Source: Chaetoderma sp. LZ-2023a (taxonomy: Eukaryota; Mollusca; Caudofoveata; Chaetodermatida; Chaetodermatidae). From it: a stretch of 64,000 nt of DNA. Positions 12,854 to 63,910 of this stretch are shown one piece after another. The DNA lies in the NCBI GenBank assembly GCA_034401795.1, contig CM067369.1, positions 92,525,241 to 92,589,240 on the forward strand, given 5' to 3'. Position 1 is the stretch's first letter. Each line of letters begins with the position of its first letter. The position numbers and the translations under genes are program-made. The notes beneath the pieces were generated by a model that saw nothing but the letters and a program-made list of their open reading frames with translations, did not search any database and had not been told where the DNA came from.

Positions 12854-13245
12854 ATGGATGCTATAATCTCATCTCAAATGTTGTAAGTGCCAGTGCAATA
12901 CATTCTTATTATGTAATACTCATCTCGTTCAATATTTTGAAAATAATTTGACTGGAGCGCAGCATCAGCTTTCAGTCAAATTAGTTTCAAAATATTCAAA
13001 AGCTTACCTGTATGGTTGCTTTTCTACAAAATTGCCAAACTATAGCTGGCAGCTCAATGACTGAGCGAATATACCGAGGCAGACGCGCTAGGTTTTTTCT
13101 GATTGATTGAAAAGTAAATCATGACATCCATCATAGACTGTAGAACTGTAGTATCACAAAATTTAGCCACTAATGCCTGAAATGTCGTTCGTTGTCGGCA
13201 TGATAAAAAGCTAAAATGTCTGGGATGGATTATTGGTGGCAAATT
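12854..13245 (+). mobile_element. F3 MITE, 3' end degraded, with HP1 core
   Basis: It starts after TTAA with GGATGCTATAATCTCATCTC, contains the HP1 palindrome at about 12,927-13,005, then shares about 190 bp (GATTGAAAAGTAAATCATGACA region) with the copies at 24,252-24,700 and 36,877-37,460. The expected terminal GAGATGAGGTTAG repeat is missing at the right side. Confidence 0.65.
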
Positions 13246-13975
13246 CTATCTGGATGGTTAGTATACGATAAGGTGAGATCTCCTTTAATCAGGAGAAACC
13301 CAGTATCACTGCATTGCTTGACCCTGGAGACGTGTGTATAGACACTGGTTATACCTCAGTTAGTTTTGAGGTTATTGTCAAAAGGGGGATTTCCGATAAT
13401 GGTGGCGGCAGCCATTTTGGAATATAATCAAATATGTCATCGGTCACCATATAACTCGTACCATTACATAGCTTGACCCTTAATTAGTGGGTATTATCAC
13501 TGGTTCCACCTCTTTAATTCCTTTAGTTTCATGTGTATGTTGAGAGAGGATATGTCTTATATGGCGGCGGCGGCCATCTTGAAAAACTCTAATCAGGGTG
13601 AGTTAGATTAGGCACCTCCTTGAATACTGATTCTATATGGCCTAACCAACACATGTGCCAAGCTTCATGCTTTGGTCCGGCGTGTCACGAGTTCAGCCAA
13701 ACTTGGCGTTACGCCACCAGATTACTGGAGAATCTAGGCATAAAACTCTTGATCTGTTGCCAATGCACGTGGTTGGGTGCATTCCAGCAAAACAAGCTTA
13801 CCACGTTGTTCAATAGAGTGTTGACTAGATAGCCTGTATCTGTGTGTCTGTTCACACACAGGACTTCACACGTAGTCGCGTTGAGTGCTGTATATAGCCT
13901 AGCTATAATAAAAGCGTCAGTCAGACATGTAAAAAAAAGTGTAATGGTTTAGCGGATGATTAGGCAGATCGCAGA
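13246..13975. other. Unannotated repeat-like DNA
   Basis: Two direct, diverged units of about 170 bp (about 13,275-13,440 and 13,441-13,610) each carry a GGCGGC-GCCATTTTGG/GCCATCTTGA motif and a TAGCTTGACCC or TTGCTTGACCC motif. No ORF with protein-like character. Possibly a distant relative of the Helitron-like modules elsewhere. Confidence 0.35.
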
Positions 13976-14004
13976 GAAATAGCTTTATAAAATGTCCAAA
14001 CTAA

Positions 14005-14250
14005 CAATCGAGGGATCCGATCTGTCACTCAAGTATCTGAAGTCATAATCAACTGCGTCGCATATTAGCTGACGTCACACGTTTTTTATGTTTTTGATAA
14101 ATTTACAATTTACTAAACATTAAATTTAATGCTTTGAGACTAAGTTGACTGGGAGCTAGGCAACAACGGCCTCCAGTCAAATTAGTTTCAAAATATTCAA
14201 CAGCTTACCTCTATAGTTATCTTGAAATTTAGATTCTGAGAAATCAGGTT
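14005..14250 (+). mobile_element. F1 MITE fragment with HP1 core
   Basis: It opens with GAGGGATCCGATCTGTCA, also present at 52,385, then a TGACGTCA octamer at 14,070-14,077, a shortened HP1 (about 14,122-14,213) and the usual AGCTTACCT exit sequence. The right end is lost. Confidence 0.6.
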
Positions 14251-14369
14251 TCCAAGGTTAAAATCAACTTCAACACAGGTTTGGTTGAAATGATTCAAGA
14301 GGTTAATGAGGATTGGTGTTTTAAAGGAGTTCATGCAAACTGTCGAAAAATCCAAGATGACACCCAAAA

Positions 14370-14752
14370 CAATGGACCTTTCCAGTTTATCCATCCATCA
14401 AATGACGTCATAATCAACTACGTGACGTATATGATGACATCATAATCAATTATAGCATGAATGACTCAAATTAGTTCGTTTTAAATGGTTAATAGTCAGA
14501 CACATTGTACGAATTGTATGTCTTTTAATAAACATGCTGTCGAATATTGTGAAACTAATTTGACTTGGCGCTCTCTGTTGCCGCCAAATTGAAATTAGTT
14601 TTAAAATATCCAACAACTTACCTGTATTATATTCTGGAAATTAAATTAATAGTCAGGAAGTTCAGGGATCGATCGATCCCAACACAAACGTGTTGTGGGT
14701 GGAGCTCAGCTAGAGTTGGTCAGGACATTGTTAAAACTGGAAAGGTCCATTG
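14370..14752 (+). mobile_element. F1 MITE, full length (383 bp)
   Basis: Terminal inverted repeats CAATGGACCTTTCCAGTTT and AAACTGGAAAGGTCCATTG are near perfect. Internal order: TGACGTCA motifs, TATGTCTTTTAATAAA, HP1 palindrome (about 14,535-14,625), CTTACCTGTAT, GGGATCGATCGATCCC, and GGGTGGAGCTCAGCTAGAG. This order defines family F1. No ORF; no clear target duplication. Confidence 0.8.
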
Positions 14753-14952
14753 ACCAACCCAGCCTTTGTATACAATTTCGGAAGACTGTCGTGCAATTCG
14801 CAATTATATGTGTAACTCATATGACAAATATGATTGAATTCCACCTAACGGTTTCAGAAGAGATATTCGGACAGACAGATGGACAGCCAGACTTGGACGG
14901 AGGGACAGAGACAATTGCGATAACCTCTCAGGTTATTTTCAAAATGCCGGGA

Positions 14953-61080: not shown

Positions 61081-61302
61081 TAGACCCTACATAAAATGGA
61101 CAGCGTGGAGTCTTTCTCGCGATCTCCGCGTCCGCATTTTGTGGATTCCATAAAGTGACACTGAGATAAAAGGGAAACTAAGAAAATGACAATACCACAC
61201 AGAATACCACACAGAATACCACACAGAATGATAACACATATATGGAATCAGATAGATCGTCCGCGTAACATCAACTAAACCAATCAAACAACAACACTCA
61301 CC

Positions 61303-61427
61303 CTCCTCTCTCTCTCTTCTCTCTCTCTCTCTCTCTCTCTCTCTCTCTCTCTCTCTCTCTCTCTTCTCTCTCTCTCTCTCTCTCTCTCTCTCTCTCTCTC
61401 TCTCTCTCTCTCTCTCTCTCTCTCTCC
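61303..61427. repeat. (CT)n microsatellite
   Basis: Over 55 CT units with two TCTTCT interruptions. ORFs of Arg-Glu repeats are artefacts. Confidence 0.97.
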
Positions 61428-61480
61428 GGCCATAATGTATCCGCTGGAGCTGATGGTACTGCAACATATCTGAATAAAGA

Positions 61481-63309
61481 CAAGAGGCCCAAGGCGGCTG
61501 TGTCGCTCACGTGGAGCACCATCAATTTTTGTCAAAATTGTTGGTGGGTGGTTTAGCAGTCTTTTAAATGAGTTTGTGGACATTTTTGCAAGTGCAATAT
61601 GGCCACCAAACACACTACATTTTGATTGCCCCACAGCGCCCATATTTCTTTGACGGATCAACTTCCCTTGAATAAATTTTAATGGCTCAAATTTCACCCT
61701 GATCCCTTCAGCGGTTCTGGAGAAGTCATTTTCGTGAAAACCGGGTCATTCAAGATGGTCGCCGAACCATTTGGTCAATCAAGTCCTCTTGAACAAACTT
61801 GGCTTACCTCTTGGCCTAGATGAAGATTTCCCAAGTGGTTTCGGAGAACATTTTTAAAGACATTTCCTGAAATTGGCCGAAATCCAAAATGGCTGCTGAG
61901 CAAATTGGCCGATCGGGTTCATTTGAACAAACTTGGATCCTTATGCCCTAAGGATGCTTCCTGCCAAATATAATTGAAATCGGCCTGGTAGTTCTCGAGA
62001 AGACATAATTTCCCATTGCTTTAGCATGGGAGCTTTTGACGAGAAAATGATCCAAGATGGCCGCCAACCCGTTTATCCGACAGTTTCGAAAATTGTAAAT
62101 TTGAGCCCAAAATAGCCAAAAACATATATAGAACCAATTTTGGCCTCAAAATCCATCAAATAAAAAAATCCAATATGTCTGCCAAACACGCTACATTTTG
62201 ATTGGCCCACGGCGGCCATGTTTTTTGACGGAGCAACTTCCCTTGAACAAACTTTAATGGCCCTTAGTCCCTAATCATATCTCCCAAATTTTGGCCTGAT
62301 CCATTCAGCAGTTCTGGAGAAGTCATTTTCGGGAAAACTAGGTCATCCAAGATGGCTGCCGAACCATTCGTTCAATCAAGTCGTCTTGAACAAACTTGGC
62401 TTACCTCTTTGCCTAGATGAGGTTTCATAAGTTTTGAATCGATTCCCCAAGACATTTCTAAAAATCGGCCGAAATCCAAGATGGTCACCGGCAAAATTGG
62501 TCGATCGGCTTCGTTTGAACAAAATGAAATCTCTATGCCATGAGGATGCCTCCTGCCAAATATAATTCAAATCGGCCCAGCAGTTCTCGAGAAAACATTT
62601 TAAATTTCCCATTGCGTCAGTATGGGAGCTTTTGGCGGAAAAATGATCCAAGATGGCCGCCAAAATTTTCGAAAATTGCAAATTTGAGATCAGAATACCC
62701 AAAAAGCTATATAAAACCAATTTCGGCCTCAAAATATATCAAATAAAAAAATCCAAACATGCTATATTTTGATTGGCACACGGCGGCCATGTTTTTTGAT
62801 GGATCTACTTCTCTTGAACAAACTTTACTGGCCCTTAGTCCCTAATCATATCTGCCAAATTTTTGGCTGATCCCGTCAGCGGTTCTGGAGAAGAAGTTAT
62901 TTTCGCTCAAACTATGTCAACCAAGATGGCCGCCGAACTATTAGACCAATAAAGTTCCCTAGAACAAATTTGGTTGAGCTCTTACCCTAGATCACATTTC
63001 ATGAGGCTTCCTTCAATCCCTCAAGCGGTTTCGGAGAAGATTTTTAAAGACGTTTCTCAAAATGGGCCAAAATCCCAGATGGCCGCCGGCCTAATTGGCA
63101 GATCGACTTCATTTGAACAAACTTGGATCCCTATGCCCTAAGGATGCTTCCTGCCAAATATAATTGAAATTGGCCAAGCGGTTCTTGAGACGAAGTCGTT
63201 TAAAGGAAAAGTTGACGGACGGACGGACGGACGACGGACGGACGACGGACACACGACGGACGGGCGCCACGACATAAGCTCACTTGGCCTTTCAGGCCAG
63301 GTGAGCTAA
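61481..63309 (+). mobile_element. Helitron-like element, three-module copy (1,829 bp)
   Basis: Starts CAAGAGGCCCAAGGCGGCTG after A; ends TTGGCCTTTCAGGCCAGGTG then AGCTAA at 63,309, followed by T. The interior has three tandem modules of about 570-576 bp: the phrase TTTTGATTG.CCCACRGCG falls at about 61,619, 62,195 and 62,766. A GACGGACGG run precedes the 3' hairpin. No replication-initiator or helicase ORF, so non-autonomous. The 3' hairpin plus CTAA and A/T insertion context are the Helitron signs; a 5' TC is not seen. Confidence 0.75.
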
Positions 63310-63489
63310 TAAATGCTGACCACTCTCGATAATGGAAAAGAATGATGCACATGTCGATATGTTCTGTCATTTTGTGCTACAACACTGTATAGTGTGTGGA
63401 AAGGTTCACACGAACACCGTTGATGATATTCGATATGCATTCTATCTACAACAGACTGAATGATGGACCACTAGAAGAGAATCGAGGAA

Positions 63490-63910
63490 TGTGGTTTTAG
63501 CTATGCCCAGCCCATTTCTAGCTAAGCTGCGCCCACACTTCGTCCTCACTCCCTCCCTATCGCTCGCTCTCCCTCCCTCCATCTCGCTGTGATCGACAGA
63601 TCTCTGAACTCCCTGACGATCAATTTCCAGAAAACTATACACGCAAGCTGTTGAATATTTTGAAACTTATTTCACTGCGTGCTGTTGCTGTTATGTCAGC
63701 AACATCGCCCAGTCAAATTAGTTCCAAAATATTCAACAACATATTTATTAAATTGTAAAGACATCCAATTCATACAACAACGTTTAGTCCGTCATCAATT
63801 AAGCGTTCGTGACGAACTCATCTATGTCATACATGACGTTCATGACGTAATTGATTATGGCATCATCCTACATGCCACGTAGTTGATTATGACGTCATGT
63901 GATTTGAGGA
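63490..63910 (-). mobile_element. F1 MITE, near full length
   Basis: In reverse: TGACGTCA at 63,890, ACAACAACGTTTAGTCCGTC, TTTATTAAATTG, HP1 at 63,650-63,742, AGCTGCGCCCAC and TTTTAGCTATGCCCAGCCC. Terminal GACCTTTCC is decayed. A TCCC/TCGC-rich insertion lies near 63,545-63,595. Confidence 0.7.

What the first reader, a model, noticed from the sequence alone, without database searches (positions are those of the whole stretch)
12927..63742. One palindromic core (HP1) sits inside three MITE families with unrelated ends
The roughly 90-bp HP1 hairpin lies centrally in F1 (14,535; 28,396; 63,650), F3 (12,927; 27,752; 37,107) and P2 (17,186; 19,535; 54,173), whose termini and flanking DNA differ. 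It also occurs alone (16,948; 30,477; 50,965). About 30 full or partial copies lie between 12.9 and 63.8 kb and none before. Arms stay paired even where the sequence has drifted. Either HP1 is itself a mobile palindrome that inserted into MITE ancestors, or MITEs exchange a modular hairpin that helps them spread (for instance by replication-fork or structure-specific recognition). I know of no described family with this property.
Basis: partly seen in the sequence, partly recalled or inferred. Interest (0 to 1): 0.78.

Follow-up and report, generated by a model that had tools for sequence, protein, structure and literature searches.

The report
Palindromic core shared by transposon families
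A 90-letter DNA palindrome sits in the middle of several families of small jumping elements that have different ends; the families appear to have inherited it together with some neighbouring DNA and to have changed their ends, rather than the palindrome jumping by itself.

Summary
The palindrome is real and very common. A profile finds 34 HP1 loci in the window (reversed window: none) and 70 in 200 kb of other stretches (reversed control: 0), which scales to 0.85 +/- 0.19 million loci, about 2.7% of sampled bases, in a 2.44-Gb animal genome. F1, P2 and F3 do have different outer ends: P2 has TTAACCCTTTCACCGA; F3 has TTAA plus a Kolobok/T2-like end; F1 has AATGGACCTTTCCAG-type ends and no visible target duplication. 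They are not unrelated next to HP1: about 30 bp on the left and 20-45 bp on the right are homologous between the three. Where both flanks could be assigned, 66 of 68 palindromes fit one family, and HP1 descent largely follows family. Clean HP1-lacking versions were not found in what I could search. HP1 is best read as the apex of an old ~210-bp foldback MITE lineage whose descendants carry different ends. Arms co-vary between families but decay independently among F1 copies. About a quarter of flanks stay unassigned, so free HP1 is not excluded. How the ends changed is inferred; one copy (L043) shows a fold-back-copy signature.

The parts
28214..28615 (+). F1, full copy, HP1 at 28395-28485; best preserved palindrome in the window
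   Evidence: ends; HP1; fold
14371..14751 (+). F1, full copy, HP1 at 14538-14615
63588..63922 (-). F1 (aligned extent), HP1 at 63649-63738
50239..50620 (+). F1 (aligned extent), HP1 at 50418-50487
41916..42148 (+). F1 left part with one HP1 arm (42101-42147); the other arm is deleted
30953..31187 (-). F1 (aligned extent), HP1 with internal deletion (31077-31138)
39339..39547 (+). F1 right part, HP1 at 39353-39422
16947..17108 (-). Truncated F1 holding the 'alone' HP1 at 16947-17003
14079..14261 (+). Old F1-like copy, HP1 at 14126-14202; right flank runs to GGTTAA
52525..52672 (+). Old F1-like copy, HP1 at 52546-52618
36873..37464 (+). F3, HP1 at 37107-37174; left end TTAAAGGGATGCTAATCTCATCTC
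   Evidence: right end read
24248..24704 (-). F3 with TTAA at both ends and one HP1 arm (24444-24479)
27702..28068 (-). F3 (left end to past HP1 at 27755-27834)
12882..13212 (+). F3 (aligned extent), HP1 at 12927-12999
17158..17336 (-). P2 with one TTAA end (17321-17336), HP1 at 17186-17276
19475..19673 (-). P2 with one TTAA end (19475), HP1 at 19535-19625
54112..54328 (-). P2 with one exact TTAA end (54112), HP1 at 54172-54262
20039..20246 (.). G: 208-bp foldback element between TTAA sites, palindromic over its whole length, diverged HP1 at 20099-20186
   Evidence: self-alignment; ends
29200..29419 (+). R family, HP1 at 29290-29374
33881..34104 (+). R family, HP1 at 33974-34057
37903..38049 (-). 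R family, HP1 at 37959-38048
21290..21564 (+). Q: repeat with HP1 at about 21318-21373, aligned to 29864-30143
   Evidence: only 21344-21371 reaches E 0.01
29864..30143 (+). Q: second copy, HP1 half at 29908-29954
38263..38369 (+). HP1 with duplicated centre inside a repeat of about 1.2 kb (38034-39194)
42684..42784 (+). HP1 with duplicated centre inside the second copy of that repeat (42456-43580)
30477..30578 (+). 'Alone' HP1; right flank F1/P2-like, ending GGTTAA
50966..51053 (+). 'Alone' HP1; flanks not clearly assigned
8656..8743 (+). HP1 copy before 12.9 kb

Best explanation
HP1 is the apical part of an old group of small foldback DNA transposons. The archetype is about 210 bp: TTAA, about 60 bp, a 91-bp palindrome, about 60 bp, TTAA; P2 and G elements look like this and R is similar. 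F1 and F3 are longer relatives that carry the same core (HP1 plus about 30 bp left and 20-45 bp right) between different outer ends, gained at or near the founding of each family, most likely when a TTAA foldback element became nested in, or joined to, another element and the composite was then copied by its outer ends. Shown: shared flanks, flank pairing by family, HP1 descent largely by family, different ends, independent decay of arms among F1 copies. Inferred: the nesting or joining event, and that different transposases (piggyBac-like, Kolobok-like and an unassigned one) move the families.
For: F1, P2 and F3 flanks align beyond HP1 (window BLAST; six anchored consensus comparisons at 30 bp with p 0.0002-0.0034, 45 comparisons made and not corrected). 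66 of 68 palindromes with both flanks assigned fit one family. HP1-only tree: 6 label changes, least possible 3, shuffled mean 16.5, 0 of 200 as low. TTAA-bounded elements of 191-221 bp with matching ends: window 20039-20246, L022 255-462 and 1112-1302, L002 9256-9476, L025 2187-2398; facing exact P2 ends 208, 212 and 223 bp apart. Old F1 copies carry TTAA, or a near variant of it, where P2 ends on the right, and F1 left flanks have TTAA 48-64 bp from HP1 more often than expected (19% and 27% of 70 in the two 8-bp bins, expected 5% each). HP1 present with F1 outer segments in 70 of 75 and 43 of 50 cases.
Against: No empty host: the predicted F1 junction without HP1 gave 233 hits with up to 3 mismatches, and 10 fetched held none; no joined-host match in the sample. 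F1 right flanks show no TTAA excess (5% and 5% of 73). The two TTAA-side ends inferred in F1 do not form a TIR. F3 is not one clade in the tree (3 changes; 21 of 500 shuffles as low) and only 1 of 69 branches is starred. 59 of 253 flanks fit no profile, 32 of 91 in L001-L020. The one piggyBac locus inspected has none of these ends.
Confidence: 0.55

Rival explanations
1. HP1 is itself a mobile palindrome that inserted independently into the ancestors of F1, F3 and P2.
For: HP1 is the best conserved part; 8 of 89 palindromes have both flanks unassigned and 59 of 253 flanks fit no profile, so free copies are not excluded.
Against: Homologous flanks beside HP1 in all three families; flank pairing by family; no target duplication or clean edge at HP1 was seen.
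Confidence: 0.12
2. HP1 acts as a hinge: hairpin-primed (fold-back) copying or joining at the palindrome replaces the flanks and so swaps the ends.
For: L043 1454-1544 has the F1 left flank on both sides, 56 of 57 bases identical from the HP1 edge, while its arms differ at 5 of 44. Fold-back priming at short palindromes is described (PMC7999016, passages). Family founders have matched arms of differing sequence.
Against: One case among 107 copies scanned, with an unclean null in that scan; an assembly error is not excluded. No family founder was traced to such an event.
Confidence: 0.15
3. All families belong to one transposon superfamily and the differing ends are only diverged versions of one TIR.
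For: P2, G, R and F3 end in TTAA; P2 and G both read TTAACCCTT.
Against: After TTAA, F3 begins AG and P2 CC; F1 is about 400 bp with another TIR and no target duplication in 24 copies (one of them counted twice through overlapping loci).
Confidence: 0.15

Closest known systems
MER6 MITE carrying the SINE V domain (PMC6887750; abstract and passages seen)
   Same: A conserved internal module is carried and multiplied by a MITE with other ends.
   Different: There the module is a SINE domain inserted in one mariner MITE; here it is a palindrome shared by several MITE families, and no separate parent of the module was found.
Xenopus T2-MITE / Kolobok (PMC6004289; passages seen)
   Same: TTAA target; F3 ends such as AGTGATACTAATC agree at 10 of 13 letters with a Xenopus Kolobok TIR (AGTGATACTGACA...).
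   Different: T2-MITE is defined there by a terminal AGGRR motif; F3 shows AGGGA at some ends and AGTGA or AGGAT at others. No transposase was linked.
piggyBac-type MITEs (recalled)
   Same: P2 and G are flanked by TTAA and begin CCC.
   Different: No autonomous element with P2 or G ends was shown; one piggyBac locus inspected lacks them.
Spy elements of the PHIS superfamily (PMC4482050 seen in listing with start of abstract; the lack of target duplication is recalled)
   Same: F1 has TIRs and no visible target duplication.
   Different: No target preference was established and no transposase linked.
CORE-SINE-like shared central domains (recalled)
   Same: A central domain shared by families with different ends.
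   Different: DNA-type elements and a palindrome instead of SINEs.

Membership tests
MITE | short, no coding capacity, terminal inverted repeats | tested here: met
   P2/G 191-221 bp, F1 303-414 bp between ends, with TIRs; absence of coding judged from length only
MITE | target site duplication | tested here: inconclusive
   TTAA at both ends for G and some P2 and F3 copies; none for F1 at k of 4 or more in 24 copies
piggyBac (P2, G) | TTAA target | tested here: met
piggyBac (P2, G) | autonomous relative with the same ends and a piggyBac transposase | tested here: inconclusive
   119 matches to PF13843 in the genome; one locus inspected has no such ends; two longer intervals between P2 ends could not be read
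Kolobok / T2-MITE (F3) | TTAA target with AGGRR terminal motif | tested here: inconclusive
   TTAA at both ends of 24248-24704; motif AGGGA at some ends, AGTGA or AGGAT at others
Kolobok / T2-MITE (F3) | Kolobok transposase with the same ends | not tested
   no search made
Spy (F1) | no target duplication | tested here: met
Spy (F1) | related transposase and fixed target sequence | not tested
   two diverged candidate empty sites were too weak to decide
known structured RNA | match to an Rfam family at gathering score | tested here: not met
   0 matches in the window

The most novel reading that the evidence does not exclude
A palindromic core acts as a hinge for end exchange: hairpin-primed copying or joining at HP1 lets one MITE lineage change its ends and so use the transposases of different superfamilies in turn, which would explain its roughly 0.85 million loci and why no clean HP1-free relatives of F1, F3 or P2 turned up.
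Probability: 0.15. Interest if true: 0.8.

Novelty: new variant of a known kind. Interest (0 to 1): 0.48.

Why it matters
Shared central domains are known for SINEs, and one MITE is known to carry a SINE domain (PMC6887750). A palindromic core shared by several MITE families with different ends, at about 2.7% of sampled bases, is a natural experiment on how non-autonomous elements change their ends and transposases and on how palindromes persist and decay. Nine searches of the held library listed no paper that I recognised, from title and start of abstract, as describing this family; most subscription journals and Repbase were not searched.

Tried and rejected
Rejected: HP1 as a known RNA (0 Rfam matches in the window). 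HP1 in viral or prokaryotic contigs: the 19-letter arm word occurs in 1 viral stretch and 4 prokaryotic stretches; the profile gives only short weak matches there, 19-24 bases at the word. A window-specific cluster: density elsewhere is similar. Pairing kept up within copies: not in F1. P2 did give a signal (7 copies; whole arm 0 of 1000 shuffles, outer 30 bases 53 of 1000, inner 14 bases 9 of 1000), which I read as sub-lineages. Empty F1 host: not found. Empty F1 insertion sites: two weak candidates, undecided. Null of the inverted-flank scan is unclean because like flanks meet in it. The species was not identified.

Rows dropped or counted twice: one search kept 266 arm ends whose alignment begins at arm position 6 or less; 253 remained after removing identical flanks. 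One search used 61 of 85 palindromes. One search used 72 rows: 69 assigned palindromes of at least 75 bp and 3 R copies added by hand. One search used 18 copies chosen by me for the arm test. One search scanned 107 of 120 full copies. Some fetched loci overlap (L025/L026, L039/L040, L046/L047), so the counts hold a few elements twice: the P2-end count of 14 of 18 is 13 of 17 distinct ends, the F3-end count of 9 of 10 is 7 of 8. In one search, 3 of the 8 F1 ends scored as lacking HP1 (L005, L011, L030) have one just outside the tested interval.
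Full report
WHAT IS THERE. HP1 is a near-perfect 91-bp palindrome with arms TGTTGAATATTTTGAAACTAATTTGACTGG...GTTGCTGCC. A profile finds 34 loci in the window at E<=0.01 and none in the reversed window. The profile was trained partly on these copies, but single-sequence BLAST gives the same picture. Three HP1 copies fold at z -15.1, -14.5 and -10.4, and the left 150 bases of the 20039 element at -7.1.

HOW COMMON. An arm pattern with 29 fixed letters has 35,252 exact matches genome-wide and 0 for the backward control. 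In twenty 10-kb stretches chosen by round coordinates (L001-L020) the profile finds 70 loci in 16 of 20 stretches, covering 2.66% of bases, and none in the reversed control at that cut-off. That scales to 0.85 +/- 0.19 million loci, partial ones included. The window is ordinary for this genome. Its first 12.9 kb hold a Ty3/gypsy-type element (about 0.4-5.5 kb) and one HP1 copy at 8656-8743.

FAMILIES. F1 spans 303-414 bp between ends of the type AAT[TG][CG]ACCTTTCCAG (two longer pairings of 538 and 636 bp join different copies) and shows no direct repeat of 4 or more bases at its edges in 24 copies. P2 has TTAACCCTTTCACCGA ends: 5,651 exact matches genome-wide, control 0. Among the 100 places listed, five facing pairs lie within 3 kb, at 208, 212, 223, 1111 and 1787 bp. 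G (window 20039-20246 and others) is palindromic over its length between TTAA sites. R resembles it: its left and right flanks are homologous to each other (p 0.0006 over 50 bp). F3 is about 460-590 bp with TTAA and then AGTGAT or AGGGAT, close to a Xenopus Kolobok TIR (PMC6004289, passages).

ARE THE ENDS UNRELATED? Outermost, yes. Next to HP1, no. BLAST between families in the window runs about 10-33 bp past HP1. Anchored alignments of the flank consensuses are significant for all six F1/P2/F3 comparisons over 30 bp, p 0.0002-0.0034, not corrected for 45 comparisons. On the right, P2 and F1 align for about 45 bp. Older F1 copies read like GAATTCAGGTTTCAAAG(G/T)TTAAAATCGATTCC on the right, with TTAA or a variant of it near where P2 ends. 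F1 left flanks show a TTAA excess 48-64 bp out; F1 right flanks show none.

DOES HP1 MOVE BETWEEN FAMILIES? Of 89 palindromes with two flanks, 68 have both assigned and 66 of these fit one family. The other two are L013 7322, which on reading looks like a TTAA family whose right flank resembles that of F1, and L043 1454. Against this, 59 of 253 flanks fit no profile, 8 of the 89 palindromes have both flanks unassigned, and in L001-L020 32 of 91 flanks are unassigned. An HP1-only tree needs 6 label changes against a shuffled mean of 16.5, 0 of 200 as low; F3 is not one clade and only 1 of 69 inner branches is starred.

HP1-LACKING VERSIONS. F1 outer segments have HP1 in 70 of 75 right and 43 of 50 left full cases. 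P2 ends have it in 14 of 18, F3 ends in 9 of 10, F1 ends in 43 of 51 (overlapping loci make some double counts, and 3 of the 8 F1 misses have HP1 just outside the tested interval). Of the 4 P2 misses, 2 show the beginning of an HP1 arm. Exact F1-end loci from the genome have HP1 in 7 of 8. A predicted empty F1 junction had 233 hits with up to 3 mismatches; 10 were fetched, 9 carry HP1 on reading and one is interrupted by a younger F1 end. No clean HP1-free version was seen, but the sample is small.

ARM PAIRING. Over 18 copies of several families, arms agree at 0.79 within and 0.70 between copies (0 of 5000 shuffles); with nine copies, one per group, 0.80 against 0.72 (0 of 5000). Relative to the reference arm, 48 cells are changed alike on both arms and 134 on one arm only. 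Among 42 F1 copies divergence is the same within and between copies (0.143 and 0.142; 725 of 1000 shuffles as low); 7 P2 copies do show a signal. My reading is that symmetry is set when a family or sub-lineage is founded and then decays. This does not tell selection on active masters from copying of one arm from the other.

A FOLD-BACK COPY. L043 1454-1544 has the F1 left flank on both sides, 56 of 57 bases identical from the HP1 edge, and on one side then F1 right sequence; its arms differ at 5 of 44. Fold-back priming at a palindrome would leave this (PMC7999016, passages). It is one case of 107, and an assembly error is not excluded.

TRANSPOSASES. The genome has 119 scored piggyBac transposase matches, at least 30 of them without a stop inside. 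One locus was read for 1 kb near each side; none of the P2, G, R or F3 ends and no HP1 was found. P2 and G as piggyBac-type and F3 as Kolobok-type rest on TTAA and end letters alone.

VERDICT. HP1 is real, abundant and shared by families with different ends. It is best explained as the conserved centre of an old foldback MITE lineage rather than a free palindrome. The closest printed parallel I saw is MER6, a MITE carrying a SINE domain (PMC6887750, abstract and passages). How F1 and F3 gained their ends is inferred.

Noticed in passing
L043:1397-1601: HP1 copy with nearly identical inverted F1 left flanks on both sides (56 of 57 bases), arms differing at 5 of 44: a possible fold-back-priming product.
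   Followed up: partly
window 384-5470 (-): Frames of a Ty3/gypsy-type retrotransposon: gag zinc knuckles, reverse transcriptase with RNase H, integrase.
   Followed up: no
window 57680-60072 (+): Frames with an endonuclease and a reverse transcriptase domain, probably a broken LINE.
   Followed up: no
window 51381-52139 (-): Open frame with CUB and EGF domains, probably part of a host gene, with HP1 copies close on both sides.
   Followed up: no
window 38263-38369 and 42684-42784: HP1 copies with a duplicated palindrome centre inside a repeat of about 1.1-1.2 kb present twice at 83% identity.
   Followed up: no
window 28214-28615 and other F1 copies: F1 left part repeats TGACGTCA (a CRE-like motif) and its right part holds GGGCGGGGC (a GC-box-like motif); motif names are recalled and no function was tested.
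   Followed up: no
   Followed up: no
window 32028-32618, 23216-23722, 45768-46796, 61284-61467: Long simple-repeat tracts seen as repetitive open frames.
   Followed up: no
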